This document shows, piece after piece, positions 5,738-61,609 of a stretch of DNA of 64,000 bases; position 1 is the stretch's first letter; every line of letters starts with the position of its first letter. Origin of the DNA: Arthrinium phaeospermum (Eukaryota > Ascomycota > Sordariomycetes > Amphisphaeriales > Apiosporaceae). Location: positions 1,798,001 to 1,862,000 of the forward strand of contig QYRS01000013.1 in the NCBI GenBank assembly GCA_006503535.1, in the 5' to 3' direction. The notes beneath the pieces were generated by a model. It saw only the letters and a program-made list of their open reading frames with translations. It was not told the origin of the DNA and searched no databases. The position numbers were made by a program, and so were the translations under genes.

Positions 5738-7603
5738 TTAATAGGGAGCACTATCGTTCCTCTTAAACCCAAACATATATTTCAACCCTCTCTTGTTCAT
5801 GTCCGGATTCCGAAATTGGGCAGGGATTTGCACGGGGATTTGCTGGGGCTCCGACACGTACACCGCGTTCGTGATCTGCGGGCGAGGCGAAGGCGCAGGT
5901 GACGATATGGCAACGAACACCAGAAAATGCGGGCGGTTCCCGGCCGCTTCCCCCTCGCTCGTACGGGGATCCTCCCGGTGCAGCGAAGCCGTGACGAAGA
6001 CGTCCGTCCCCACCTGCAGTTGCGTCGTGATCAGGGTCCCGTACCGGTCCCGGTAGCTCTGACGCTCCGCTAGATAGCTCTCCATGTTGGGCGGCGGCCC
6101 CTGGGGCGACATCTCTACACACGAGCCAAGTGCGGCACTCAGCTGAACCCAGTTGTCAGAGTAACCAACACTTAGGTAGAATGGCGACCGCAGGGGGGAC
6201 TCAAAATTGATGTGTAACGGGTCGTTGTAGAGACCCAGGTCGGAGGTCTGAAAGAAGACGCAGCCATATAGCGACGACCAGCTGACTTTGCGTTGTGGCG
6301 AGGGCTGGAAAAGCCATGGTCCGACTACTGACTTAACAATGTAGCCGTACACCGGATCAGCCGTCCCTTTGGCACCAAGCTCTGTGGTTAGAGGAAGGTT
6401 TTGGAGATGGATACCTCCATGGTCAAACGGGGCGTGATGGGCCCCGATCTGGAGCTTCTTAGCTATAAAAATGTCGCTCCTTGATGCACTGTGCTTCTTA
6501 GAGGTGTCGATGAAATCAAGGCTCGACATGCCTAATCGATGATAGATCCTAGAGCCCGCACTGCCAACGAGGCCACGGGGCTTCACCCGCAAAAGCCGAA
6601 TCATAGCAAGGTCTGTCGAACTTCGGCCACAGTTGAGGATGGCCGAGACGACCTCAATTTCGGTCTTAAGAAAACCCTGGGAAAGATGGGATAGTGCAGA
6701 ATAGTCGCGAGGCACCAGAGGCAGATGGACAGATAAACCCAAGTTGGTCATCGTGAACGGTTTACTTAGCTCTGGGAAGACTTGGACCAACGACGCGCTG
6801 GAAGCAAAATCGGCCGGCGACTCGGCGAGAATCCCAACCGTGTTAAAAGACCGTGGGCTCTCCGGAGAGACGGTCCAAGCAAAGATGGTCTGGTCGTCGG
6901 TGTCCTTCAGAATCTCCTCCTGCAGTCTGGTGAATGCCTTCTTCCCTTCTCCGTAAAGGAGGGGCATGTTGACGTCGAAGAGGCCCATGAGACTGTACGC
7001 GACATCTTCGATGCGGGTGCACTCGCGCTGCGCAGCCCAGCTCATCCGCCGCGCGATGCTGAACTCGTCGGGCTTCTGAACGCCGCGGAGACATTCTGCG
7101 GGTATATTGGTGGCGTTCAGGATCTGGCCGAGCATGTGGTCCTCAGAGGTGTCGCCGACGCACATCCAGTTCACGTCAAAGAAGATGACCTTGCTGGGCG
7201 CGATCAACTCTTGCAGCGTCCAGCCTCTCGTGAACCAGCGCGAGTCGCCGAACTTGAAGGCCGGGCGCAGCTGCGAGAAATCGGACAAGTACGCATAGCA
7301 GACGGCGGAATCGGTGTAGTACTGGTACATGGAGTTGATGGCCTCCGACAGCTCGGCACTGCTCGTCTTGTCGATGCAGCACGTGTCGATCCAGATCCAC
7401 TCGTAGCCGTCTCCCAGTGCCTGGTTGGCGGCAGCTTTGAGCTTCTGATAGCCTGCTTTGGCAGAAGTCTGTGGAGCCGGGGACTGCATCTCCTGGAGAG
7501 TCATCTCGCCCTTGCCCCAGGTATGCGAGAGAATTGCATATTTCGGGACGGTTTTGCCGAAGAACTCGATGATTTCGAGTGTGCGGGTATTTATGAGCCT
7601 CAT
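5738..7603 (-). CDS. HET-domain (heterokaryon incompatibility) protein
   Basis: This single-exon gene encodes 621 residues starting at ATG 7603. The N-terminal third is a clear HET domain (Pfam HET family): it opens MRLINT, followed by YAILSHTWGKGEMT (about residues 21-34), WIWIDTCCIDK (about 69-79), YAYLSDF, RGWTLQELIAP (about 124-134) and, at the domain end, RIEDVAYSLMGLFDVNMPLLYGEG. This is the common lone-HET architecture with a roughly 400-residue C-terminal region of no recognised domain. HET domains are known to trigger regulated cell death in fungal non-self recognition; whether this one does is not shown. All canonical HET blocks are present and uninterrupted, so it appears intact. 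Confidence 0.93.
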   Translation of the reverse strand: MRLINTRTLEIIEFFGKTVPKYAILSHTWGKGEMTLQEMQSPAPQTSAKAGYQKLKAAANQALGDGYEWIWIDTCCIDKTSSAELSEAINSMYQYYTDSAVCYAYLSDFSQLRPAFKFGDSRWFTRGWTLQELIAPSKVIFFDVNWMCVGDTSEDHMLGQILNATNIPAECLRGVQKPDEFSIARRMSWAAQRECTRIEDVAYSLMGLFDVNMPLLYGEGKKAFTRLQEEILKDTDDQTIFAWTVSPESPRSFNTVGILAESPADFASSASLVQVFPELSKPFTMTNLGLSVHLPLVPRDYSALSHLSQGFLKTEIEVVSAILNCGRSSTDLAMIRLLRVKPRGLVGSAGSRIYHRLGMSSLDFIDTSKKHSASRSDIFIAKKLQIGAHHAPFDHGGIHLQNLPLTTELGAKGTADPVYGYIVKSVVGPWLFQPSPQRKVSWSSLYGCVFFQTSDLGLYNDPLHINFESPLRSPFYLSVGYSDNWVQLSAALGSCVEMSPQGPPPNMESYLAERQSYRDRYGTLITTQLQVGTDVFVTASLHREDPRTSEGEAAGNRPHFLVFVAISSPAPSPRPQITNAVYVSEPQQIPVQIPAQFRNPDMNKRGLKYMFGFKRNDSAPY

Positions 7604-8744
7604 CTTGGCCCCTTTGATCGATATACTAGTGATATTTTGGCCATATCAGCGGGTGTTTGACAACACCTCGTGCGGCTGAGGCTGTCTCCTTCATGATGCG
7701 CCAGCCGTAAGCGTTTCGGACCATCGTTGCGCCGGACACCCAACTAGATCTAAGACGGGTTACAAAGTACGTAGGTCAGCATAGGTATACTAGACTCGAA
7801 GCCGGCGGTATGTCATCGACAGCTCTCCCATCGATGAATCATACAGAAATATATCGCACTTTGGGCCCCAAGCTGTTAAGTACGTATCGGCCAAGTTGAA
7901 GTCTACTACCAGAAACGAAATGTTACTGGCACCCGTGCAGGTGGGCTTGACTTGCCAAGTAGAACCCACGGATTTGGTGGGTACCTTAAGTAGGTACCTA
8001 CTTCCAAGACTGATGGGTACCAGTAGCCCACGCCCAGCGCCGCCACGGGCTTTTGGAAAGCTCACGGCAGTCCTATGGGTTAGGCGAATACAGTTCGGTG
8101 GCCAGTGTAATTGCAATCCTGCTATATATGACGGGTACTGAGCCGAGACTGTTCATCAATTGATAGCAACAATTTCAGCATGAAGAACAAATCCGGAATT
8201 CAAGTGGAAGCAGGCGTGCGGGTACCCACCTAGGAGGTATTTGGTTACTGGTATGCACGCCATTATGCCTTTCGCTGGAAGACTTTGGGCTAGCCAGATC
8301 TAGCCCCAAAATTATCAATCGAGTTACACGCCGCCATCGCTTGCACAACACTCGAATAACCATCATAGTAGGTATACAGACGCTTAAATAAACACCAAAA
8401 TGAATGTAACTACTCTTGATGACTAGCTATAGTCATAGCCACTTTCAATCTATAGACATTCGAGGACAGATGCACAGCTGAGACACGACAGTTCGCCGCA
8501 CGATTTCACGTGGATGGCGGCCTTAATCTGAGACCTGCAGAAGGTTCGCGGGACTCTGCCGTGATAGATCGCGATTGCCCCACCATTCGCCTACTACGTC
8601 ATCCCTTGGGTCGTCCGACGTATGCCCCGAATCAGGTTGGATATCCCGGACGGACGCGAAGAGAGAAAGTTCTCTAGATAGTAACCATCCGACTTTGCGA
8701 CCATTCAAACTACAGTAGGACATCGATCGACTAACGCCACCACC
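7604..8744. other. Divergent intergenic region between HET and SET genes
   Basis: This 1.1 kb divergent promoter region contains the 16-bp palindrome 7988-8003 (TAGGTACCTA core) and no convincing ORF. A short polypyrimidine/adenine-poor segment precedes the SET gene start. I see no tRNA or other RNA gene. Confidence 0.5.
7988..8003. repeat. 16-bp perfect palindrome
   Basis: The 16 bases starting AAGTAGGT are self-complementary around the KpnI-like core GGTACC. It shares the TAGGTAC element with the palindrome at 5474-5495 and sits in a divergent promoter. Confidence 0.55.
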
Positions 8745-10514: not shown

Positions 10515-13302
10515 GTTCTGAATGTGTATGACAATCTATCTCAAAATATGCAATCTTTTTTTGCTTTTGTTCCTGACAAGTCAACGGCTCAAAGAGGGGC
10601 GGCCTGCATAATCCCATGTCGCTTCTCCATCCGACATTCGTCATTTTCTACGGAAAACCCGAAAGGGGGAAGGGGGTCTCCGAGGGGTTTCGTGAGAACG
10701 GAACCCACTCCGAGGTGTGTGATCGAGCACCTGTACAAGTAGATCGCGATTCTCGACCGGGAGTGTGGAACGGCAATCTATTGTGCAATATCCCGATTTC
10801 CGAGGGGGCGCTCACCTAATATTTGAAGAATGTAGTAGTACGCTTACACATCGGTAGATTAGCTATCATGCACGTAAAGACTATCTACCTCGTACCTGGT
10901 CAGGCCCGATCTGATTTCAAATTGCGATGGCCTATATGGAGCGTCGACAAACTGACCCGGCCGTCTTCGGCACCGTCTTGTTTGTCGCGAAAGCTAACAA
11001 CTCGCGGCTGACCTTGCCATTACTGTCCCGTTCATCTGATGTTAGTCCAGGGGATGAACGAGGTTGACCCATGATCGTTGTCCTAGCACAGGCATGGTTC
11101 GTCTGCGTAGGTGACACACACTGTGTGACTGATGTCGTTCTGATCTTCGAAGTCTGAACTTTGCTAGTAGTCACGAGGTTTGTTTCTTTGGGAGTTTTCT
11201 TTTTGTTGTTCCCCTACGTCCCCTGGCGTCGGCAGGGCTAGATTGTTATGGACAGCACGGCACCTGACTCTGCGACGACGTTGCAACGGGAGAGGTTCAC
11301 CAGTAGATTGCTGCAATTCTTGGCGCATGCGCTGCTGCTACGATGAAGCAAAACGGACCGGATACTCACTCGGATCAGTGATGACGGCCGATGACGGCTG
11401 TATGTGTAGTATGTAAGGGTTTGGTCATTGCGCACATCAATCAATGTGGGCATCAGGAGCTGTACCAAGCGATGCATCTCCAAACAAACAATCATTTGTT
11501 GATTTAGACGGCGGTTTCAACGCATGCGAGGTTATCGATGAGCTTCGGACACGCCCGTGCTGTTGACCGACGTGCCAGTAGCCATCCGACCAAAGCATCA
11601 GCTGTAATTTACCGAGACGACGGAAGTGGTTGCCTACCGAGAGACCTCAGAGGCTTAGACTTGCAAAACCTTGGTTCCATCATAAACTTTCTTCGGCCGA
11701 GCATCTCATCGATTGCGCACGCGGTACCTGAGGCGGCAACTTTAGCCATGCCCAGTCGTGGGCGACGGTGCGCCGTGAGCGGCAACGGGAGCAAACAGTG
11801 TGACCCGTCCGTCCGAGGTTAACTTGCAGGCCGGACGATAAAGCAGGCGACCAGGTTCGACCTGCCTGCAATGCCTTGAAACGACCAAGAACGGGGATCA
11901 CCCACGGAAGTTGCTACTAGCAGGAATCCCCACGAGGGCCGGGCTTGTACTTGCAGAACTCGACACCGACACGTGCAAGAAGCCACCTACCCCGCGGCAT
12001 CTCCCCCTGGCGGGAGCTTCCGGGTTGGGAAATCGGGGCCGCGTCGGGAACTTCCCATGGCAAATTATGGCCCTGGTCAAACCGGGGACCGATGGGGTAG
12101 CCATCCTCTTATCACATATGGACCGACTGGTGAGTGGAGGGAAAAGATCAAAAGCAATACATGGAACAATTACGCCATACCTGGAACTCCCTTGAACTTT
12201 CTCAAACAGCAACGGCAAAAAACAACACCGGAGATGTCTGCGAAATGGGAAGAGATGGACGGGTCAACCCACGCGAGGCCATTTCTGCGGCCTGGTCTAG
12301 AATGCAGCCGTTAGCGTAGGGGTCTTGCCGCGGTTCGCATGGCTTGATGAGCTGCTTGTAGTAAGTAATAGAAGGAAGGGGTGGAAAAAACCAAACTTGA
12401 TTGCAATACGCACCATCGAACTCAATCTTGCAACTACATGTAGTCTAACCCAAAGCGACCAAAAGGCCCCCCTACCCAACAAATGGAAGAACACAATTGT
12501 TACCTCGACTTTGCCCAATTCAGCAAATGACTTGGCTGATAAGCCATCAATCAATCCATCGCCCACCGGCGCATGACTTGAAATATTGAAGTGGCCTTGG
12601 TATGGCCTGATGACTGGGTCCCAGCTGACTCTTTACCTAATTTTTCTATTTATACTCGTAGCCTATATCGACGCATATTGATATTCCCTTCTAATCTTGC
12701 GGTGTGAGAGTGGTAGGAACCATGAATAACGACGAATCCCGAAGATGGACATGGGCCGGGTGGGAGCGCATGTCGGGCTCCCGGGTGTGACGGGCGGACA
12801 GCAGTAGGTAGTCGCCCTACTGTATCTATTTCTCCGCGTCTTTTTGGTGGTGTGCGACTACTACCCAAATGCCGGGACACCAAGACACTAACGTGCTTGC
12901 ACACCCATTCGCCGGCCTTACCTCCCCTGGGCTTAGTGATGCCAATGTGCCGACCGAGTGTGTGCTTGTTAGTGATACATACTTGTTAGAAATGCGCAAC
13001 CAAATTGGTGAGCGGCTCTAGGCTTGGCCGGGGCGCCCCTTGGACGACTCACGAGAGGCAAATTACCAACTACCACTCCGTACTGCTACTGCATACGAGG
13101 AGTTTGTCGCAATTCTTGGTGTTGGGGTCACATTGCCAAAATTCTAGCCCACGCGCCTCTGTTCTCGCATCGTGCCACCGCGGCGCACGCCAAGGTCACA
13201 TAGGGCAAATGGGAAACGAAACATTGACCACTTCCCAAAAATATCTCCTTGGCAGCGCGGTTGGTGCTGATGCTAATGATGCTCATGCTGTGCTGCGTGT
13301 AC

Positions 13303-15647: not shown

Positions 15648-18258
<2,611 letters not shown>

Positions 18259-21932: not shown

Positions 21933-23348
21933 TCAATCAGCGCCTGCCATCCTGACCAAATCCTCACTAATGATGTCAAACGGGTTCAACCCCTCGCTCT
22001 GCCTCCGCAGCACCTCGACCCGCCGCCGGAAACCGCCGTCCCGCAGCGTCGACTCGACGGCGCCCCGGACCTGCTCGACCGACGGCCGCGCCGTGGCCAG
22101 GTCGACGCCGACGCCCGACCAGCCCACCCGCCTCGCGTTCTCCGTCTTGTCCATGCCCTCGCCCGCGACCACCATGGGGACCCCGTGCGCGATGCCGTGG
22201 TTGACGGCGCCGAAGCCGGCGTTGTGGACCCAGACGTCGGCGTGCTCCAGCACGACGTCGTAGTTGAGGTAGTCGGCCACGCGCGCGTGGCCGGGGACGC
22301 CGTCGTTCGGCATCAACTCGGCCAGCGACGCGTCCTTCCACCCCAGGATGGCGACGACCACGACGTCTTGGTCCCGGTCGGAAAAGGCGCGGATCGTCGG
22401 GATGATCAGGTCGTTCGGGTCGACCTCGACGGTGCCCTGCGCGACCACCACCACCTTCTTCCGTCGCGGGTCGTCCGCCGCCAGGGCCGAGTTCGCCTTC
22501 AGCTCGCCCCACCAGTCGAAGCGGGGGTCCGGCAGGACGGTGCCCTTTGGCGTCCCCTGCACGAGCCCGACGAACCGGAAGCCCGCGGGCCAGTCGCTGC
22601 GGGGATACTCGAAGCCGGGCACGCCGACTTGGTAGATGGCGTCGTGGCAGCGGTAATTGGCCCCCGCGAGGATGGGCTCCCCCGTACCCCGGCCGGCGCC
22701 CGACGCCAGCAGCTGCTTGTCCAGCAAGGCCGTCAAGTCGGCCGCGCTCCGTGTCCACTTCTCCCAGAGGGCTAGGTTCCGCGCGTGGCCCGCGTCCGAC
22801 TGGTCAAACGGCGCCGCGTACGCAAAGGGCGGCAGGTCGATGCTCTTGATGGCGGGGACCGTGATGGACACGCACACAGTCCTGGGCACGGGGACACCAG
22901 GCGGGAGCGGCGCGCCGTACTTCAAGGGCATGATGCCGAGGAAGAAGGCCTCGGCGACGACCATGACCCGTCGGCCCCGCTCGTGCAGCGTCGCCAGGAC
23001 CGACTTGAAGTTCTCCCACTGAGTCGGCAGCGTCTCCAAGCACTGCAGCCGCAAGTCGATCTTGCCGCGCTGGGTCCAGGGCAGTGCCTTGTAGCCCGGC
23101 GCCAGGGAATCCGGGTCGGCGTAGTACGCTTGATCATTGATGTCCGCAACGCCCTGTAGGGCGAAGAACTCAGCGCCTGCCGCCTCGATTCGCTGGCGGT
23201 GCGCGGTCGGGCCCAGGAAGGCGACATCCCACCCCCGGCTGCGCAGGCCGCTGGCGACCCGGATCAGGGGCTGGAGGTGGCCGGACAATGTGTGGCATAC
23301 CACGAGAACCACCGGACGCTGCGGCTTGACTGCTGGGTCGTCACCCAT
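21933..23348 (-). CDS. UDP-glycosyltransferase (GT1, MGT-like)
   Basis: This single-exon gene encodes 471 residues. The ATG at 23348 (MGDDPAVKPQRP) is the first true start codon in the frame. The N-terminal Rossmann half begins VVLVVCHTLSGHLQPLIRVA, the usual acceptor-domain start with a catalytic-type His (SGHLQP). The C-terminal donor half contains VVVVAQGTVEVDPNDLIIPT and the donor-binding motif VWVHNAGFGAVNHGIAHGVP, ending in an amphipathic helix. This matches GT1 enzymes of bacterial macrolide/fungal UGT type, which transfer sugar from a nucleotide donor to small lipophilic acceptors; sterol, flavonoid or mycotoxin acceptors are all possible. No transmembrane tail is present, so it is probably cytosolic. 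It is convergent with the GFA gene. Confidence 0.88.
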   Translation of the reverse strand: MGDDPAVKPQRPVVLVVCHTLSGHLQPLIRVASGLRSRGWDVAFLGPTAHRQRIEAAGAEFFALQGVADINDQAYYADPDSLAPGYKALPWTQRGKIDLRLQCLETLPTQWENFKSVLATLHERGRRVMVVAEAFFLGIMPLKYGAPLPPGVPVPRTVCVSITVPAIKSIDLPPFAYAAPFDQSDAGHARNLALWEKWTRSAADLTALLDKQLLASGAGRGTGEPILAGANYRCHDAIYQVGVPGFEYPRSDWPAGFRFVGLVQGTPKGTVLPDPRFDWWGELKANSALAADDPRRKKVVVVAQGTVEVDPNDLIIPTIRAFSDRDQDVVVVAILGWKDASLAELMPNDGVPGHARVADYLNYDVVLEHADVWVHNAGFGAVNHGIAHGVPMVVAGEGMDKTENARRVGWSGVGVDLATARPSVEQVRGAVESTLRDGGFRRRVEVLRRQSEGLNPFDIISEDLVRMAGAD

Positions 23349-23853
23349 GATGATAATAGAAAGGACCAATCAAAGACAATTTGCGTGTGCACAGGTCAAG
23401 AATGTGACGAGGAAGGAAGTTGACGTCTGATTGGGGATTTCGAGGGTGTGAATGACAAGTCTATTGACGTGTTGTCAACCAATTGATTATTACACAGCAC
23501 AGCCACAATAGGCTAGTGACTGCAGCTGTCTGCAAATGACAGCGGAACCCCTAGGTATCAATGGAATAAACACCCAGAAAGGACTGAAGGATGACATGCA
23601 CAGAGGAAAAGGAAGTAATGAGTATGGAGAATGGAATTGTAATTACATTGTAAATAAAAATTATATCTATCAAAATTGGGTATCATACTACTGCCTGCAA
23701 TGCACACACACCAAAGGGGGCCGTAATGGCCAAAACGGATAACGCCTGCTGCAAATTAGAGGACGTTCCATATTGCGAGACCCGACGAGCGCTAATCCGA
23801 GCCTGCAGACGAGGCCCTTCTCCTAGGCCCAAAGGACGACATCGATCAATCAA
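23349..23853. other. Intergenic region upstream of the UGT gene
   Basis: AT-rich sequence of about 500 bp carries the UGT promoter and the 3' flank of the Ser/Thr-rich gene. An ORF at 23536-23742 looks like random AT-rich sequence. No gene is supported. Confidence 0.5.
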
Positions 23854-26060
23854 TCACGCACTGGGTGTGGCAGTGACTGTCGCCATGTCCGTGGTCGTCG
23901 TTGTCGTGGTCACCGTCTCAGTCTCCTTGACAGTAACCGTGACAGGGCGAGCTGGATTGGCAATGACTTTGGCGGTGCTGTGCACGGGAATATCGGTGGG
24001 GATAGGCCCGAGGTGTCCATGATGCGGTCGCGTAATCGGAATGATCTCCAGCGAAGTCAGGGTCGAGGGCGGCTGCGGAGGCTTGGATTCGGAGGTGGAA
24101 CTGGGCACCGGGGCTGGAGGTGAAGGTGGTGGCGGAGGAGGGGCGGAGGAGGAAACGACTGGCGGTAGGATTGGCGGGATAACCACAATGGTCGTAAGGA
24201 TGGCAGGCGGCGGTGATGTAGAAGACCGAGTCATCGTCAGTAGGGTGGTCGAAGGAGCCTCGGTGACTGTCGTGGTTTCCGGTGTTGTTTCCTTGGGCGG
24301 AGCAATGATAATCGAAGTAACAACTTCAGTCGGGACTATGGTAACCGTTACCTCTGAGGGCTGACCGCTGTTGACTTGAGATGCTGTCGTAGTAACAGAT
24401 GGGGCTGGGCTGTTGACTTGCGATGTCGTCGCAGACGGGGCTGGCTTGGAGTCTCCCAAAATGCGTCCAGCAACATTGGGATCGTAGCACCCAACCTGAA
24501 CTCCCGTCGTCGTGTTCATTGGTAGCGCAAAGCATTTCGTGTTGCCCATGCAAGGGGTAATGGAAAAAGCCCCAGACTTGCCACATTGACCAATGTTGTC
24601 ATTGACACAGGCGACCTGTCCAGCCATGCAGGCGGTGTCCTCCTTGAGACCCCCAAATAGGCTGTTATACTTCTGTGCCTGTGCTAGGTTGCTAGCCATG
24701 ACATCGGGCCCGACTGTCGACGCAGAAGATGGCAAGGCGGTGATGACGGTGGGTACATTCCGGTTAATGGTTCCAGATGCTGTCACCGAGTGTGAAACAT
24801 AAGACGATTTCGAAGTCACGCCTGGTGCCGTCGCTGAGGCAAGCTTTGACGAAGAGGCAGAAGGGCTAGCAGCAACAGCCGAGGTAGTAGCAGCGACAGA
24901 AGACGTTGCAGCGGCAGTCGAGGAAGAAGCGGCCGTGGAAGAACTTGCTGCGATAGATGAAGCTACCTTGGTGGAGGAAGCAGTGGGGCTGGTACCACTC
25001 GCACCCCCCGTGGCTGACGTGAAGAAATCAGCCAGACTAGTGCGAGCAGCTGAGGTTGCCGGAGCCGACGAGCTGGTTGCCATTGAAGAGCTCGACTTCG
25101 TCGAAGAGCTGGCAGTCTGTACGAGAGACCCCGACGCTGATCCAGAAGCAACCCCAGATGAGATGCTGGAAGAAGCGGTGCTCGGTGTCGCTGAGCTCGC
25201 TGGGTCGGTACTCCTGGACTGGCTTGATGCGGTACTGGATGCTCCAAGCGCAGCACTCGAGGTCGGAACAATGCTCGAAGAAGTGGGTTGCGCTGATTGG
25301 GAAGCAGTTGCAACTAGTGAGGATGAGTGAGCGGTGGCGGCAGCCGAGGACGAGGCCTGGCCGCTTGCCAAAGAGCCTGCCGCAACGCTCGAAGATGCAA
25401 CAGCGCTACTGGACGCGCCATGACTTGTGGTGTCAATGAGACTGAAAATGCGCGAGACAGAACTGTATGAAGACGTCGTCGGTGATGCCAGACTAGACGC
25501 GATCGCCGATGATGTGGCAGAGGGTGAAGCTAAAAGAGTGTTTGGGATAGAACCCGTAACTGAACTGCTACTCGTTGACAATATAGATGAAGAAGTAGCG
25601 GCGGTGGAAGCCGGGATGGAGGACTGCGTCAATATCGACCCTGGCGTCGACGACGACACGACAACTACCGCGACTGAAGAAGACGACGATTGAGCGTGAG
25701 TAGAAGACGTCTCTGGTGCTGATAACGTCGCACTGGGGCTGTCCACGGCGAAACCGGCAGAGGCAGCAAGGCTGCTCGGCGTGAGTGCTAAGGATGGAAT
25801 GCTACTCGAGGGCAGCAAAGATGTAGACATGGAAGTCATTTGTTGTACAACTGACGAAGACGGCTGCTTGAAGACCCTAGAGGTGGCCTCGTCTAATTCG
25901 TCTCGTCTCAATCTAGGAATCGTTAGTATTGGTACGTTTGCGTGGGGATGTTGCCAAGGGGGGGAGGAGAGGTAACTTACCGTTCCCGGCGCCTCAGCGG
26001 GCCCGCCGCTGAGGCCTCGGACAACAAGAGAATGCTAAGAAAGAAAGCTGAAGTGTACAT
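23854..26060 (-). CDS. Ser/Thr-rich secreted protein with CBM19-like cysteine module
   Basis: Exon 1 (25981-26060) encodes a signal peptide beginning MYTSAFFLSILLL followed by a basic segment (PLRRRER). After a 68-nt phase-2 intron, exon 2 (23854-25912) gives a total of 712 residues. Residues about 60-410 are mucin-like, almost only Ser, Ala, Thr and Pro, and probably heavily O-glycosylated. Around residues 455-525 there is a compact module (CMAGQVACVNDNIGQCGKSG, then CMGNTKCFALP and VGCYDPN) that resembles the CBM19-type carbohydrate-binding pattern of fungal proteins. A second Thr/Pro-rich stalk follows, with TVTVKETETVTTTT. No C-terminal hydrophobic GPI signal is visible. I infer an extracellular or wall-bound protein that binds chitin or glucan; the ligand is not proven. 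Confidence 0.8.
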
Positions 26061-38341: not shown

Positions 38342-38737
38342 TTAGATGTTGCACTCGACGAGTACGTTGCAGGCACCTGCGGGCGGGCTACAGACAGTTG
38401 AATAGTAGCATGGTTGATTGTCGCTTGCGCACTGCAAGCAAAGGCCGGGTGGGACTTTTGGTTAGCTATCTGGCCTCAATGTCCCAAGCAAAACCCATCG
38501 TGACCTACCTTGCCACTGGTGCAGGTACCCAGCGGGCCATCATCACCAAAGCAGGTGTTGGACCGCTCAGCGCAGACCTGGGAGTTTGCATGGTCAGCGG
38601 GTGTACGAAGATAAAGAAGTGCGTGTTGTCCGACGTACTCCAGTGATGCCTTGTCTGCGCTGTAACGCGGCGCCGCCGTATACGCCGGTGGCAGCGAGGC
38701 CAATGATGGAGGAGAGAACGCAGAGTTTGAAATGCAT
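38342..38737 (-). CDS. Small cysteine-rich secreted protein (effector-like), three exons
   Basis: Splicing three short exons (38639-38737, 38509-38577, 38342-38431) yields an 85-residue protein ending at TAA 38342. The first intron (61 nt, GTACGT...CCAG with CTGAC) and second intron (77 nt, GTAGGT...TTGCAG with GCTAAC) are both phase 0 and textbook fungal. Residues 1-20 form a signal peptide (MHFKLCVLSSIIGLAATGVY). A Kex2-type site (LQRRQG, cleavage after residue 28) follows. The mature part has eight cysteines at positions 35, 42, 52, 57, 64, 70, 77 and 83, enough for four disulphides, including CFGDDGPLGTC and CYYSTVC. The C-terminus is ECNI. No family is recognised. Secretion plus eight cysteines fits candidate effectors or antimicrobial peptides, by inference only. 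Confidence 0.8.
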
Positions 38738-44169: not shown

Positions 44170-45561
44170 TCACTTTCCCCGTTTCGGGCTCGACCCAACC
44201 CCCGCGAACCTCCTCATCCAGTCAAGTGTATTGGTCGAGTGACCAGACCTCCCCGGGCTGGTGCTGACGACGTTTCCAGGACTTCGAGACTTGCGGTGGT
44301 GGTGTTTCCTGTGCTTTTCATGCTTGTGATCATCGTAATCATCCAGATATTGGGGAGGAATACTGTGCCGATGATGACCATGGTGCGAGGAGCTCTTTCG
44401 GCCCGTCTCCATGGTCTTGTCAGAATGGAATTTCCGAAGCGGAGGGCGGGGGTCAACGGGCCACAGGGCCGCCTCGGCCATCGTCTTCTTCACGACGCAC
44501 TGGGGATACTCGGGACACGGAGTGAACGGGGGGCAATAGTGGTTGATGTAAGTCATATCGGCCGAGTAATACGAGCTTTCCGGCTTGCTGTGGTCGTCGT
44601 GATATAGAGTGTGCCTTCTGTGCCTTCTTCGCCTTTTCTCCTCCTCTTCGCGGCTTTCCCCGTAAGGATCGAAATCCCTTGGACGATATATTATCTTGGT
44701 GGGGATTGGGCTGGCTTCGTGTCGCCTCGGTCCCCAATAGAGATCGCTCTCGCATCTCCCGTCCATGGAAAAGAGTGGAGTGTTAGCGATTGAATACCTT
44801 CTGGTTTCGTAGACGGCCGGCCTGGAACGACGCTCACGGGAGACTGGCCTCGACCTGTACTCTGGTTTCTCCTGATATAGGAAAGGGTCTTCAGGTTCAA
44901 GGTAATCAAACACATCGACAGGCGTCTGTTGTCCCTTTGCTTCGGGGTTCGGTGGCTGCCTCGTCTCGTATAATGTGGCCCCGTCATCGTCATCGTCATC
45001 ATCCCCATCATCTTCGTCGTCCGCATCACGTTCATCATCAGTCACCTCGCCCAGAGCACCATCCTCATCCGACAAATAATCGGTGTCGTCGTTTTCGGTG
45101 TCATCGAGCTCGGACTCGGACTCGGACTCGGACTCGGACTCAGACTCGGCATCTCCTCGACTCTCCTGAATACTACTCAACCGGGTGTTTTTGCGGCCCC
45201 CGTCGGCGCTGTGCGCCATTTCGGAGCGGAGGGTGTCACCACTGGGCGACTTCGCCAGGGCCGGCTGCTCCGTCCGTGGTCTGTGCAAAGGGCCTTCGCG
45301 CCGCATGTCGGCCACCTTGCCGCAAACGGGGCACCTTCTGCTGGGGCCCCTGTAGTAGGGCGCGGTGCAGGCACAGCAGCACATGTGGCCGCACGAGAAT
45401 TGGTACGGCATTTTGTGTGCCAGTCCATCCGGTCCGGGTACCCTGAAATCGCGCCCGCATCGGTCGCACTTGTACGACTTGGGGGCCGCGGCGGCGGCGG
45501 CGGCGCGATGGTAACTGACGTTGAGGCTCGAGGAGCTCGCGTGGACGTTGCCGGACTTCAT
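44170..45561 (-). CDS. RING-like zinc-finger protein with acidic low-complexity region
   Basis: This single-exon gene encodes 463 residues from ATG 45561. The N-terminal region has an alanine run and then zinc ligands: YKCDRCGRDF (about residues 30-39), FSCGHMCCCACTAPYY and RRCPVCGK (to about residue 82), arranged like a divergent RING or treble-clef. Then comes a strongly acidic, repetitive section (SESESESESE-type, encoded by the hexamer repeat at 45109-45149, and a run of Asp), and a basic, His-rich C-terminus (HHGHHRHS, HRKHHHRKSRS). E3 ligase activity is possible from the zinc pattern but not shown. The composition suggests a nuclear or chromatin-associated protein. No closer family is recognised. 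Confidence 0.7.
   Translation of the reverse strand: MKSGNVHASSSSLNVSYHRAAAAAAAPKSYKCDRCGRDFRVPGPDGLAHKMPYQFSCGHMCCCACTAPYYRGPSRRCPVCGKVADMRREGPLHRPRTEQPALAKSPSGDTLRSEMAHSADGGRKNTRLSSIQESRGDAESESESESESESELDDTENDDTDYLSDEDGALGEVTDDERDADDEDDGDDDDDDDGATLYETRQPPNPEAKGQQTPVDVFDYLEPEDPFLYQEKPEYRSRPVSRERRSRPAVYETRRYSIANTPLFSMDGRCESDLYWGPRRHEASPIPTKIIYRPRDFDPYGESREEEEKRRRRHRRHTLYHDDHSKPESSYYSADMTYINHYCPPFTPCPEYPQCVVKKTMAEAALWPVDPRPPLRKFHSDKTMETGRKSSSHHGHHRHSIPPQYLDDYDDHKHEKHRKHHHRKSRSPGNVVSTSPGRSGHSTNTLDWMRRFAGVGSSPKRGK
45109..45149. repeat. Hexanucleotide coding repeat (GGACTC)n
   Basis: About six imperfect copies of CTCGGA/GGACTC encode the Ser-Glu dipeptide run of the RING-like protein on the minus strand. 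It is a likely site of length variation. Confidence 0.75.
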
Positions 45562-46056
45562 CGTTGCTGGAGGAGAGGAGTGGGCGCACTCAAGGCAGGA
45601 AGGAGGAGCTGGTGATTTGTTCAGAAGGTCATGCGAGATGGGAAATCAGACAGGATGTGTGCTTCTCCTTGTTACTCTGGGTTCGGAATCATTTTGTACG
45701 TTTCGGGTCTGCCTCGGGTTATAAAAGGGAGTGAATACGGACAGTGGGACAAAGGAAATGCCTCCCCCTTGAGCGGTTGGTTGTCAGGCAGACGACAAAC
45801 ATGACAAAAGCGTAACTAACTTCTCCATTCTTCCATTCCAATGCGAAGCGAATTCTTTGTTGTTGCACAAAGCAAACTTTGGGATCTCTTCCCGTCTTTC
45901 AGAGTTTTCGATTGTTCGCGAGGTTTTTGGGGGACTCCGGCGACCAAGCTTCAGATTAACTTTGCAGGCCGCCTCCCACACGAGCCGGCAGGACACTGTA
46001 AAAGGCCGACTATGGCTACGAGACGGATTCAAGATAAGGAATCAGGATCAAAACTG
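45562..46056. other. Intergenic region
   Basis: This is the promoter side of the RING-like gene (with a TTATAAAAGG element near 45720) and the 3' flank of the P450 gene. No gene is supported. Confidence 0.5.
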
Positions 46057-47936
46057 TCATCCCGTGCCACCCAACTCTGCAAATCCACTGTCGCGCTTTC
46101 TCAGCCGGCAGGTCAGCCCCCCACTGACCCGGTACAGCCAGCGCGACACTGCGTTCCATTCCTCCGTTGCGTCTACGAGCTCAATCTTGTACCGCTTAAT
46201 CAGGGTGGCGACCACCTTGTACACCTCCATCTGGCTCAGGTGTCGACCGAGGCAGATCCTCGAGCCACCCCCAAACGTCAGGTCCGACGCACTCCACAGC
46301 CGCATGCGCTCCTGGTGCTCCGCAGGCTCCTCGCCCTCCTGCTGGAGCCAGCGGTCGGGGATGAACTCGTCGGCGTCCGGACCGAAGATCTCCTTGTTCC
46401 GGTTGAGGACGTAGGGGTTCATGCCGACCGTGGTCCCGCCCGGCACGACGCTCCCGTCGGGCAGGGTCAGGCCGGACTCCGGCACAATCCTCTCCAAGGC
46501 CATGCCCGCGGCGGGGTGGATGCGTAGGGCCTCGCGGATCACGGCGTCGAGATACGGGATTGATCTGGCTACCGAGTAGGAAGGCGCCTCGCTCGGGTCA
46601 ATTTCCGCTGCGAGAACGTCTTCGTTGAGTCGCGTCCACGCCTGGGGCGAACGCATGCAGTAGTAAAACAATGCCTTCAGCGTGATACCCGTGGTATCCG
46701 CTCCGGCGATCAGGTTGAGGAGAAGATAGCCGATTGTCGTCACGTTGTCCACGGTCTGCGGATGCGAGGTCTGCGAGTCGATGAAGTACTGCAGGAAATC
46801 GGGGTGCTGGGGGTTGAAGGCGGTGTCTTCCCCCTTGAGGCGAGAGAATAGTGACTCAGTAGCGATGCGCGTCGCATGCTCCAGATTCGGCGGGCCTAAG
46901 TGCACGAGGGGATTCTTGTCCAGCCAGTGATCGAGCGATGGAATATTCCCGACGATCCCCAGGTAGTCCAACGATTGGTCTCCTATTTCCTGTGTGCCGT
47001 CAAAATCACAACCCTTTTCCATGTACCCAAACTTTTTGCTGAATGTCACGGCACTCATGAAGTCCCAAGTATCTGTACAAGGTCAGCGATGAAAAGTGGC
47101 AGTCGTGTGATTTTATCTTTGGCTTGATAGATCCACGGGAAACTTACAATGTTTCAGCCATTCGTCAAGGGGACAATGTTGGCCCGTGGTGGCGAAACGG
47201 TTGTCCAACTGCTCGCAAAAGTCCTCAATGACCTCGTCCATCAGCGGCTCCGTAGCCAAGACGCTCGAGTTGGAATAGTGCCGCACAATCGGCTTCTTGA
47301 GGTTGGCGTGCTTGACTGTGTCGGTCTCGCTGAAGAGGTGGTACATGATCTTGCCGTCTACAAAGGTGCTGTTGACTTTGTAGAAGTCCGACTGAAACTG
47401 TGAGCACCACTCGAATCAATTTTCAGGGGGGACCCCCACTCACTTTTAGCCACTTTCCGTTGGTGTTGTAGACTGTTCGGATCAAGGAGGGGATGTTCAA
47501 ATCTAGCATATTTGGGCCCGTTCGAACAACAGGCCCATGCTGATCATGGAGCTTCTTGATAATGGGCGCATAGTTGGAGGATATCGCCAGGTGGAACCTC
47601 CACCCATTTGTCCAGCCTAAGTCCCCATAGTTGTCAGCGTTACCTTAAGTATTCATGATCCAGCATACGTATGATGTCATGGGGCAGCCATTATATCTTG
47701 GCCAGTAGGGTTTGGGGAGTTGAAAGTACAAAAACCATCCTACCTGCCAAAGCCGGTCCAGGGTACTTTCGGAGAGGAGACCGCTGATAGGTGACAAGAT
47801 TCCATATAATCATAAGAAACGCTGGTGCGAAGACGAAAGCCCATACAACAGACTTGTTGTATTGGCCCAAGATCCCCGGAAACTGACTGTAGGACGCATC
47901 CGCCGACACGATGGAGTAATTATAGTGAGCCATCAT
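46057..47936 (-). CDS. Cytochrome P450, pisatin-demethylase-like
   Basis: Four exons (47744-47936, 47444-47616, 47148-47397, 46057-47072) encode 543 residues. The N-terminus carries one membrane anchor (SVVWAFVFAPAFLMIIWNL) and the proline hinge KYPGPALAG. Hallmarks follow: I-helix AGADTTGITL (O2 activation), K-helix ExxR in REALRIHPAAG, PERF-type FIPDRWL, and haem loop FGGGSRICLGRHLS with the cysteine ligand. Substrate-recognition region and overall spacing resemble the pisatin demethylase (CYP57)-type group, ER monooxygenases that often detoxify plant phytoalexins or act in secondary metabolism; substrate not known here. Two ATGs (47936, 47933) are adjacent. All introns keep frame. Contrast with the dead P450 at 19.6-20.5 kb. 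Confidence 0.93.
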
Positions 47937-57316: not shown

Positions 57317-60313
57317 TTATGCATAGAACTGCCCTTTCTCGAGCGGGAGGACTGGCCCCAAGGAGAAAGTGGCATGATGGACTGGCTCACTGTCATCCAC
57401 CGTCCCCCAGGCCAAGCCGTGTTCGGACAGCTTCTCCTCGAACCTCCGCACCCTATAGTACGCATACGACCCCGCAATCGGGTCGGGAGTGGAAAGGACG
57501 CCCAGCTCGTCTCGACTCGGGTGCCCGTGAGCGAGCCCCACCCCGTGCGCACTACCCGTCGTCAATCCCACCGCCTCGACCCAGCTACCGACTCGACTCC
57601 GCTGCTGGACCGCCGCTGGCTCCATCATCCCTCCTCTTTCTCCTTCTTCTGTCTTTTCTCCGCCGTATCCGCCTCCACTGCCTGCGGCGGCCACGACCTG
57701 CGGGAAGAAGAAGGAAGAGGTGGGGCATGTCGCTGCCGCCAGACTGGCGCTGCAGGTGGCGAACAGCGGCATGCGCTCGGCGCCCATGTACCGCCGGAAC
57801 CAACCCACCGCCAGCATGACGCCGACCAGCAGCGCGAGCAGCCCCGCCGTCGCGAGGATGGGTATCGCCGAGTAGCCCACCGCCGTCATCACGGTCCTGG
57901 GCGACAACGTCGCCGTCGCCGGGTTCTGGACCTGGACCTGGACCTGGGGGCGCAGGAGTCCGTCGTACGCGGCGACGCGCAGCAGGAAGAGGCTCTCGCC
58001 CAACAGCCAGTGCAGCGCGGCGCACCCCATCAGCAGCGGCAGCGAAAAGTGCAGCGGCAGGTGCAGGTGGAAGCTCGAGCGCTGCGCCGTGTCGGGCCGC
58101 GGGACGCTGACGCGCAGCCCGCCGCGCCGCACCGCGAACCGGCTCACCTCGGCGTGCGCCAGCATCGCCGTCAGGGCCGCGTTGCACGTCAGGTAGACGT
58201 AGAGGCCCAGGAGCTGCGGCGTGTTGGCCACGAGCGCGGTCGCTGCGGCGCCCCATTTTCTGGTGCTGCCCGCGATGGCTTGCAGGGAGGGCTGGCCGAA
58301 CCCTACCGCCAGGGAGAGGTCTTGCTGCTGCAGGCGGAAGCCGAAGAAGAGGCCGAGGATGGCGAGGACGACGAGGATCGGGGGCAGCTGGCGCGCGAAG
58401 AAGCCGGGGACGCCGGTGTGCCAGCGGGGCGCCGACTTGCGTCCCTGCTCCTCCATCATGCGCGTCTCGGCCTCGTCGGGCGGCTGGCCGAAGCAGCCGA
58501 GCTGGGACAGGCGGTGGCGCCCCTTGGTGGACCCGGGCGGCTCCAGCGTGAAGCCCGCCTTCTCGTGGGATCCCAGGACCGTGGTCCGGCGCCGCGCCCG
58601 CCCGTTCCACGGCAGCGGCATGGGCTGGCTCGAGTTCCAGAACCCGACGTTGACGTCCTCCTCGTCCTCGGTCCCCTCTTCCTCTTCCTCCACCTCGCCC
58701 ACGGCCGCCTCGTCGCGCCCCTCCACCTGCGCCTGCTGCGTCGTGGCGGACCCGCGCCGCCGTCCTCGCCGCCGGGCGTGGATGTTGCGCTGCCGCCGGG
58801 CCTTCTTCACCAGGCGCGCCGAGGCGAGGCAGCGGCCCGCGAACCGCAGGTCCGGGTCGCGCAGGTAGCTCGCGATGAGGTCGCCGCTCGTCACGATGCG
58901 CTCGTCGCCCTCGAGCTGGCTGCCGCCGCGGCCGCGCCGTCGGACGGCGAACCAGGTGCCGACGAGGCAGAGCAGCTGCAGGGCGTTGGCGCCCAGCACC
59001 GCGTACTGGAGGATCGGCAGGCTGGCCAATCGGCAGGAGCCCGCGGACGAGGATGGTAGGGGCGAGCCGTCGGCGGCGGCGACGGTCGGCTGCGCCATGC
59101 AGTACTTGACGGGGACGTTGGACTGCGCGAGGGTCGCCAGGTAGGGGTCCGAGGACGCCAGGGCGGACCAGCCGGCCGCGTGGGAGAGCGGCGTCCAGGA
59201 CGTGCTGTTGGTGTCGGCGAGGGAGTGGTAGTCGCACGCTGGTGAGGTCGGGGCGGGCAGGCCGCACACCCAGCTGTTGCCGAACCCTACCGAGGTGTCG
59301 GTCTCGTCGTCGGTCCCGATTAAGCGTGTCCCCGCGAAAAGGAAAGAGTTGGTTTCGTTGCGTGTACCAAAGACCAAGGCCAAATTGCCGTAAAGTCCTG
59401 TCGAGGCGCTTCCGTACGCCCTGATGCAATCCGCCGCCGTCAGATTCGCCAACCCCGAACCACGCATGGCCGGAAGCCAAACCTCGTCAAAGTTCTTCCG
59501 GCTCCCTTGAAACCAGCCAGGGATGGATTTCTCCGGGCTGGTGCTGAAATTGCCCTCGCCGGTGGAGGTGAAGAAGTCCTCAGTGACGCCTCCGACGTAG
59601 TAATCGTTCGCGCCGATTGTCTCCACGAGCGCCGCGTTCCACAGCAGGTGCAGCGGAAGGGTGCTGACCATCAGGAGCAGGCATATCGCCGCCCGGTTGA
59701 GCCCGATGTGCGGCAGGTTGGACAGGTTGGGCACGCCGACCCACAGCCAGCGCTTGTGCCGGTGGACCAGGTCGAGCTCGCCCCGCGTCGGCGACACGAG
59801 GATCTGCATGCAGTAGTTGGCCCCGGCCAGCAGGATCGTGGCCAGGATGTTGATGACGAGCCGCAGGACGATGGCGAAAGTGCGCGTCGTGCCGCAGTCG
59901 CCCTGGTAGAAGGTGACTACTTGGTTGTTGATGCCCGTCGGCAGCTGCTGTACGTCATTGTCGCCACCGCCGTCCTGACTCCTCATCCGAAGCACGGAGA
60001 GGACGGTAGTGGCGACGTTGAGGCCCAGGATGAGGGCGCAGACGAGGATGCAGAGGACGAGACCGGTGCGCCAGCCGCGTATCCGCTGCAGAAGATCCTC
60101 GAGGGCCTCCCGCGCCGTGCCCTTGTCTTTATCCTGGCCGCTGCCGCGTCTGCTGCCTCCGGGCGACCCCCTGAAGCGTTCGAGGATCCGGTAGGGTGGG
60201 ATATATGTAGCAAGGTGATGCGTTCCTGTCATCGGGGTGTCGTTGTCGTCGCTCCATCTCGACACCGGCCGCTGCTCCATCTCGACTTGCGGTACAGGCT
60301 CCCAAGTCGCCAT
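57317..60313 (-). CDS. DUF6536 polytopic membrane protein
   Basis: This is a single-exon gene of 998 residues; the start at ATG 60313 (MATWEPVPQVEMEQR) is preferred over any upstream extension because the sequence before it is low-complexity. Residues about 75-200 match the DUF6536 layout: RIRGWRTGLVLCILVCALILG, NVATTVLSVLRM, a Cys-Gly signature CGTTRTFAIVLRLVINILAT, then GANYCMQILVSPTRGELDL and HKRWLWVGVPNLSNLPHIG. A large luminal loop with cysteines and N-glycosylation sites follows, then further membrane spans near residues 440, 640, 690, 770 and 840. An acidic insert (EVEEEEEGTEDEED) and a QVQVQVQ run are low-complexity. Length and layout agree with this uncharacterised fungal family; function unknown. 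Confidence 0.85.
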   Translation of the reverse strand: MATWEPVPQVEMEQRPVSRWSDDNDTPMTGTHHLATYIPPYRILERFRGSPGGSRRGSGQDKDKGTAREALEDLLQRIRGWRTGLVLCILVCALILGLNVATTVLSVLRMRSQDGGGDNDVQQLPTGINNQVVTFYQGDCGTTRTFAIVLRLVINILATILLAGANYCMQILVSPTRGELDLVHRHKRWLWVGVPNLSNLPHIGLNRAAICLLLMVSTLPLHLLWNAALVETIGANDYYVGGVTEDFFTSTGEGNFSTSPEKSIPGWFQGSRKNFDEVWLPAMRGSGLANLTAADCIRAYGSASTGLYGNLALVFGTRNETNSFLFAGTRLIGTDDETDTSVGFGNSWVCGLPAPTSPACDYHSLADTNSTSWTPLSHAAGWSALASSDPYLATLAQSNVPVKYCMAQPTVAAADGSPLPSSSAGSCRLASLPILQYAVLGANALQLLCLVGTWFAVRRRGRGGSQLEGDERIVTSGDLIASYLRDPDLRFAGRCLASARLVKKARRQRNIHARRRGRRRGSATTQQAQVEGRDEAAVGEVEEEEEGTEDEEDVNVGFWNSSQPMPLPWNGRARRRTTVLGSHEKAGFTLEPPGSTKGRHRLSQLGCFGQPPDEAETRMMEEQGRKSAPRWHTGVPGFFARQLPPILVVLAILGLFFGFRLQQQDLSLAVGFGQPSLQAIAGSTRKWGAAATALVANTPQLLGLYVYLTCNAALTAMLAHAEVSRFAVRRGGLRVSVPRPDTAQRSSFHLHLPLHFSLPLLMGCAALHWLLGESLFLLRVAAYDGLLRPQVQVQVQNPATATLSPRTVMTAVGYSAIPILATAGLLALLVGVMLAVGWFRRYMGAERMPLFATCSASLAAATCPTSSFFFPQVVAAAGSGGGYGGEKTEEGERGGMMEPAAVQQRSRVGSWVEAVGLTTGSAHGVGLAHGHPSRDELGVLSTPDPIAGSYAYYRVRRFEEKLSEHGLAWGTVDDSEPVHHATFSLGPVLPLEKGQFYA

Positions 60314-61609
60314 GCTTGGTGATGGTAGAGTGGGGAAAGAGGAAGAAACAACACCACACAGGGGGGGAAGAGAAGGCAAATCGTGTTTATCTCCCCCAAG
60401 AGCATCAGAAGATTACACTTTGCCCCTGGGCCGTTGCACGGTTAGCCTGTTTCCATGACAACGTTCATTTCCTCCTCGGGCCCAGCCACCGTTATCCGTT
60501 CCTCTCCCACCGAGACCATGACTGTTCCAGCCGTTCAGAGCTTGTAGCGCCTCTGGCTTGTTAATACGAGCACCGGCAGAGCTTAGTTTTCCATTTGGGC
60601 CAGGCTGGGCTTGGTGGCTTCAAAGCCAATACCGGGCCAGGTCTTTGGTCAGAAACCTAATCTCGTTTTTTTGCCACGATCAAGGACACCGAAACGTGAT
60701 TAGATAATTGTTCTTGCAGATCTAGATATCATAAGCGTGTCAGAGACTGGCAGATATCAGTAGCGCGCCCCTTGCATGATTCTCTTAGGGATCGATGTCG
60801 GAATGGTGCGCCACAGGATCTGCACACCCCTATATGCCATATTAATGGGGCCAAAAGCAAACTCGTGATGTTTCCGAACACTCCTAAACTCACAATATAG
60901 GGTGAATCAATAGGTATGTGTTCGGTGGATGTTTGACTAGAAACGGAAAGACACATGGCGATACCTGACTATAACCCCCAAGCATGATATCATACTGCAG
61001 AATATCTCTGTATATTTCGAATCCCACCATTTATAGACGCCAACAACATCCCCTAAAGCTTGATGTAACAGGTCCAAGGTCGCCTTCTCTGTCTGCTTCG
61101 GTTCTACTAACGTTGTGCCAGCCCATTTGCCTTCATTTTCGCGACGGATAGCAAGATTCTTAAGTTAGACGTGTGACTGGACTCGAATCATCAGTGTTGC
61201 TTATTGGGTTGAGGTTCCTCCGGCGAGACCTTCCGGGGCACAAACCTGGGCCATCAAGTCACCTGTCGTAATTTGTTATGCATTCTCTGATCACCACCGA
61301 GATCTCTTATCAGTAACAGGGAATGACTCCAGTATTCCGAGTGGGAGGCGGATAGAGAAAGCCGTCGGCATGTTTTGTTGGTTGGGCCCTCCTCACGACC
61401 CGGCCTAGTGGTTCACTCTAGCATGTTATGGATAGCGTTGTTGGTTTCCAGCAGTGGGCATCCTGGTTTCAATGTAACCTCAGCTGAACGTATGTAAAGT
61501 TCCACATCCCATTCCTTGGGTGCCCATGCCACTTCACAAACTCAGATTACCTCACAGTAGTTACGTGTTCACGACCAACAGTCCATTTGTTCAATCAGAT
61601 TCTTCAACT
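60314..61609. other. Divergent intergenic region between DUF6536 and methyltransferase genes
   Basis: This 1.3 kb region holds the promoters of both genes. Short ORFs (60237-60564 and 60729-60956) lack support. No RNA gene or repeat stands out. Confidence 0.5.

What the first reader, a model, noticed from the sequence alone, without database searches (positions are those of the whole stretch)
38342..38737. Undescribed small secreted cysteine-rich protein hidden in three micro-sized exons
Seen directly: two textbook introns in phase 0 join three exons of 99, 69 and 90 nt into an 85-residue protein with a signal peptide, a Kex2-type RR site and eight cysteines in the mature part. Simple ORF calling misses it, because the unspliced frame stops shortly after the signal peptide. 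Known: secreted peptides of this size with many cysteines are typical fungal effectors or antimicrobial peptides. Inference: this is a candidate effector or antimicrobial factor; no family is recognised.
Basis: partly seen in the sequence, partly recalled or inferred. Interest (0 to 1): 0.75.

Follow-up and report, generated by a model that had tools for sequence, protein, structure and literature searches.

The report
Small secreted cysteine-rich fungal peptide gene
A real, spliced gene of an Apiospora-like fungus appears to encode a small secreted peptide with eight cysteines; genes of this kind are common in plant-associated fungi, and this one has no recognised family and one close relative found so far.

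Summary
Removing two introns joins exons of 99, 69 and 90 nt into an 85-residue protein with a signal-like N-terminus, an RR site and eight cysteines after it. A search of about 5.8 billion proteins returned one hit, an independently annotated protein of Apiospora sp. TS-2023a (PG984_001383): 94% identical, all nine cysteines and the RR site kept. Its locus number fits the gene order seen here with a RING-like and a P450 gene. Synonymous codon usage and a chance scan agree that it is a gene.

It is a typical small secreted cysteine-rich protein, with no Pfam family above threshold and no convincing paralogue in its genome. The mature peptide is acidic (calculated charge -3.3, pI 4.1), which argues against a classical cationic antimicrobial. 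It is already in public data as a hypothetical protein. The fold could not be placed. Best reading: a disulfide-stabilised, Kex2-processed peptide acting outside the fungal cell, probably effector-like. Function is inferred, not shown. New member of a known kind; modest interest.

The parts
38639..38737 (-). Exon 1 (99 nt): start codon, signal-like peptide (residues 1-21), short pro-segment (22-28, GAALQRR), first residues of the mature peptide
   Evidence: Sequence and translation; hydrophobic-core score 2.51 against a threshold of 1.8. Cleavage points are inferred; SignalP was not available
38654..38659 (-). Codons of R27 R28, Kex2-type dibasic site
   Evidence: Direct reading; kept as ERR against QRR in the orthologue
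38578..38638 (-). Intron 1 (61 nt), GTACGT donor, CTGAC branch-like site at 38593-38597, CAG acceptor, phase 0
   Evidence: Sequence; the orthologue's annotated protein joins the same residues
38509..38577 (-). Exon 2 (69 nt): VCAERSNTC to TSGK, cysteines 35, 42, 52
38432..38508 (-). Intron 2 (77 nt), GTAGGT donor, CTAAC branch-like site at 38461-38465, CAG acceptor, phase 0
38342..38431 (-). Exon 3 (90 nt with stop): cysteines 57, 64, 70, 77, 83
   Evidence: the orthologue ends two residues earlier
44173..45645 (-). Syntenic marker: RING-like protein frame
   Evidence: zf-RING_5 below its cutoff; 51% identical to PG984_001379 of Apiospora sp. TS-2023a and PG996_001476 of A. saccharicola
46060..47082 (-). 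Syntenic marker: cytochrome P450 frame
   Evidence: Pfam p450; 162 of 186 aligned residues identical to PG984_001377

Best explanation
A functional three-exon gene of an Apiospora-like fungus encoding a pre-pro-peptide. A signal peptide sends it into the secretory pathway (inferred from sequence). A Kex2-type protease cuts after the RR to release a peptide of about 57 residues beginning QGITG (inferred). Its eight cysteines pair into up to four disulfides, giving a small, compact, acidic peptide that is stable outside the cell (inferred). It most likely works as an effector-type peptide in the plant apoplast or at the hyphal surface, binding a host or cell-surface target rather than lysing microbes (inferred). 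Shown: gene structure, orthologue, gene order, composition. Not shown: transcription, secretion, processing, disulfides, target.
For: Spliced frame and splice signals; chance scan; synonymous codon usage; single, 94% identical orthologue with all cysteines and the RR kept; gene order consistent with locus numbers 1377, 1379 and 1383 in that species. Differences concentrate before the cut: 4 of 28 positions against 1 of 55 after it (Fisher p 0.04), and the mature part differs less than the aligned P450 stretch, 1 of 55 against 24 of 186 (p 0.02). Acidic mature peptide. Apiospora is reported in bamboo as endophyte, saprobe or pathogen (PMC12586400, abstract start), and seven Apiospora/Arthrinium genomes are reported with 1,235-1,619 predicted effectors each (PMC12202052, Table 4 passage).
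Against: No expression, host or activity data. High conservation of the mature part fits a self-directed or structural role at least as well as an arms-race effector. Only one orthologue found, so constraint rests on two species and three genes. The structure model is low in confidence.
Confidence: 0.5

Rival explanations
1. A self-acting extracellular peptide: it coats or modifies the hyphal wall, or tunes growth or sporulation of the fungus itself, with no host target.
For: Mature part nearly unchanged between two species; acidic. Precedent: the secreted cysteine-rich anionic protein Sca of Penicillium digitatum (pI 4.54) is reported as not antimicrobial but promoting growth of its own fungus (PMC7711571, abstract and passages).
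Against: Sca differs (117 residues, 4 cysteines, widespread in ascomycetes). A general self-role would be expected in more species, yet the search returned one orthologue, though missed annotation could explain that.
Confidence: 0.22
2. An antimicrobial or antifungal peptide used against competitors, folded as a small disulfide-rich, perhaps knottin-like, domain.
For: Size and cysteine content; sub-threshold match to Pfam PF11410 Antifungal_pept over residues 45-61 (14 bits, cutoff 22, E 0.047; similar for the orthologue, E 0.038).
Against: Calculated charge -3.3 and pI 4.1, whereas fungal antifungal proteins are described as cationic (PMC7711571 passage); match below cutoff and confined to 17 residues; no structure match.
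Confidence: 0.2
3. A chance open arrangement or a dead remnant, not an expressed gene.
For: No RNA evidence was available; no paralogue with a gene model; the codon score that includes amino-acid choice is near zero.
Against: Independently annotated orthologue matching the splice product over 83 residues in consistent gene order; synonymous codon usage; chance scan.
Confidence: 0.03

Closest known systems
PG984_001383, hypothetical protein of Apiospora sp. TS-2023a (P0001)
   Same: 94% identity; all nine cysteines, RR site and gene order consistent
   Different: Five substitutions in 83 positions, four of them before the RR cut; lacks the last two residues
Pfam PF11410 Antifungal_pept (plant knottin-type antifungal peptides, recalled)
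   Same: 17 residues around GTCTSGKC resemble the profile
   Different: 14 bits against a cutoff of 22; longer cysteine pattern without a CC pair; acidic
Sca, secreted cysteine-rich anionic protein of Penicillium digitatum
   Same: Small, secreted, acidic, pre-pro-protein, predicted beta-rich (PMC7711571 passages)
   Different: 117 residues with 4 cysteines, widespread in ascomycetes; no sequence relation was tested
Small secreted cysteine-rich candidate effectors of plant-associated ascomycetes (general class)
   Same: Size, signal-like start, dibasic site, cysteine content
   Different: No sequence family shared; no in planta evidence

Membership tests
Small secreted cysteine-rich protein (SSCP) | Small mature protein, rich in cysteine | tested here: met
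   57 residues after the RR, 8 cysteines
Small secreted cysteine-rich protein (SSCP) | N-terminal signal peptide | tested here: met
   Only by a hydrophobic-core rule (score 2.51, threshold 1.8); SignalP not available
Small secreted cysteine-rich protein (SSCP) | Secretion of the product | not testable with these tools
   Needs culture filtrate proteomics
Fungal effector of plants | Expression in planta and action on the host | not testable with these tools
   No transcript or host data in reach
Pfam PF11410 Antifungal_pept | Score at or above the gathering cutoff | tested here: not met
   14 bits against 22; orthologue 14.3
PAF/AFP-type fungal antifungal protein | Cationic mature protein, Pfam match | tested here: not met
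   Charge -3.3, pI 4.1; no such Pfam match
CS-alpha-beta defensin | C-x3-C with C-x-C spacing (recalled) | tested here: not met
   Spacings are 6, 9, 4, 6, 5, 6, 5 from the positions
Hydrophobin | Eight cysteines with two CC pairs (recalled) | tested here: not met
   No adjacent cysteines
Knottin fold | Cystine-knot disulfide connectivity | tested here: inconclusive
   Single-sequence model of the orthologue, pLDDT 60, pTM 0.40; no structure match
Fungal RiPP precursor | Repeated Kex2-separated cores and a nearby UstYa-type gene (recalled) | tested here: not met
   One RR site; no UstYa family among 28 window frames scanned with Pfam (10, 8, 10); other window frames were not scanned

The most novel reading that the evidence does not exclude
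An Apiospora-restricted secreted peptide with an eight-cysteine, all-beta fold of its own, built from two exon-coded cysteine modules (exons 2 and 3, sharing C-A-x5-C) and kept nearly unchanged because it binds one specific extracellular target.
Probability: 0.1. Interest if true: 0.5.

Novelty: new member of a known kind. Interest (0 to 1): 0.25.

Why it matters
[quoted passage not shown] The point worth testing is a nearly unchanged acidic mature peptide beside neighbours that have diverged more.

Tried and rejected
Paralogues in the same genome: besides the gene itself, one search gave two weak matches (C1:3909713-3909805, E 0.078; C2:2013830-2013934, E 0.113). Both were read. On the matching strand neither yields a model with a signal-like start and at least 5 cysteines under lax splice rules, so they are not counted. 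One reversed-peptide control gave 0 matches at E <= 10, so it does not show that such weak matches arise by chance; the C2 one stays open.

Internal duplication of exons 2 and 3: alignment score 29, reached by 212 of 5000 full shuffles and 378 of 5000 cysteine-keeping shuffles. Suggestive at most.

Three competing plus-strand frames over the gene score 0.005, -0.071 and -0.031 in synonymous codon usage, against 0.089 for the gene.

RNA families: 0 at gathering threshold; tRNAs: 0 by ARAGORN with the bacterial setting. Literature: three searches gave 15, 10 and 12 listed papers; I saw none on this protein in the listings. Of PMC10999098, PMC12202052, PMC7711571, PMC9496123 and PMC12586400 I saw only passages found by terms, not whole texts or supplements. 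The species was not identified; Apiospora or close kin is inferred from top protein matches.

Full report
Observation. Both introns have a GT donor (GTACGT, GTAGGT), a branch-like site (CTGAC, CTAAC) and a CAG acceptor, and both lie between codons. The product has a 28-residue leader ending in LQRR, then 57 residues with eight cysteines spaced 6, 9, 4, 6, 5, 6 and 5 residues apart. The exons are short, but 'micro-sized' overstates it.

Is it real? Four lines agree. First, a rule-based scan of both strands finds this locus and no other in the window, and none in 40 random second-order Markov single strands of 64 kb. The rules were set after seeing the gene, and a laxer scan finds one more, unconvincing model at 10927-11416. 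Second, synonymous codon usage learned from seven window frames with Pfam or homologue support scores the spliced frame at 0.089; the 39 chunks of those same training frames have a mean of 0.066 (22 of 39 at or below the gene), none of 146 overlapping flanking windows (one frame per strand) reaches 0.089, and the introns score -0.37 and -0.10. The companion score that counts amino-acid choice gives 0.008, so it is no help. Third, a search of about 5.8 billion proteins gives one hit, PG984_001383 of Apiospora sp. TS-2023a (E 9.1e-47, 94% identity), which follows the splice product without a gap for 83 residues. Fourth, the P450, RING-like and peptide genes have locus numbers 1377, 1379 and 1383 in that species, in line with their order on the minus strand here.

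Constraint. Against the orthologue, 4 of 28 positions up to the RR cut differ but only 1 of 55 after it (Fisher p 0.04). The mature part also differs less than the aligned stretch of the neighbouring P450, 24 of 186 (p 0.02). The RING-like neighbour is 51% identical. With two species and three genes this suggests, but does not prove, purifying selection on the mature peptide.

Range. Eight named Apiospora species or strains appear among the 120 P450 matches listed of 532, yet the peptide search returned one protein, in a cluster of 2 member sequences. That search sees annotated proteins of limited length that share short words, so a three-exon gene of this size may simply be unannotated elsewhere. 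In its own 48.4-Mb genome no second copy with a gene model was found.

What it is. No Pfam family reaches its cutoff, and NCBIfam, made for prokaryotes, gives none. The only trace is PF11410, 14 bits against a cutoff of 22 over 17 residues. Comparison with sequences of solved structures gives only a spurious stretch at E 0.81. The single-sequence AlphaFold2 model of the orthologue is beta-rich but low in confidence, and structure searches found no match.

How it most likely works. Inferred chain: removal of a signal peptide at about residue 21, Kex2-type cleavage after R28, up to four disulfides, export. The mature peptide has a calculated charge of -3.3 and pI 4.1, while fungal antifungal proteins are described as cationic (PMC7711571, passage); membrane-directed killing is therefore less likely. 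Apiospora is described in bamboo as endophyte, saprobe or pathogen (PMC12586400, abstract start), and seven Apiospora/Arthrinium genomes are reported with 1,235-1,619 predicted effectors each (PMC12202052, Table 4 passage). An extracellular effector-type peptide is the best guess at about 0.5; a self-acting surface or growth peptide and an antimicrobial follow at about 0.2 each.

Verdict. Observation confirmed; interpretation partly supported. It is a new member of a known kind, an orphan at the level of sequence families, already present in the annotation of a relative as a hypothetical protein. Interest is modest: one plausible candidate among more than a thousand of its class per genome.

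Noticed in passing
L005 (G000:C2:2013830-2013934, plus strand): Weak match (E 0.113, 31% over 35 residues) to the C-terminal part of the peptide, with a stretch YYPNTCSPISGLCNLMV resembling YYSTVCSPPAGACNVLV; no gene model found around it. A decayed relative or chance.
   Followed up: partly
44173-45645 minus: RING-like protein with acidic and serine-rich tracts only 51% identical to its syntenic counterparts in TS-2023a and A. saccharicola, in a region where the P450 is 87% identical over the aligned part.
   Followed up: partly
57320-60412 minus: 1031-residue frame with DUF6536 in the most G+C-rich stretch of the window (0.692 at 58001-60000).
   Followed up: no
23857-26034 minus: 726-residue stop-free frame without a Pfam match at E <= 0.001, overlapping the strongest GC skew of the window (0.205 at 24001-26000).
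   Followed up: no
5741-7645 minus; 16852-18255 plus; 21936-23369 minus: HET-domain (heterokaryon incompatibility) protein, a peroxidase and a glycosyltransferase-like protein.
   Followed up: no
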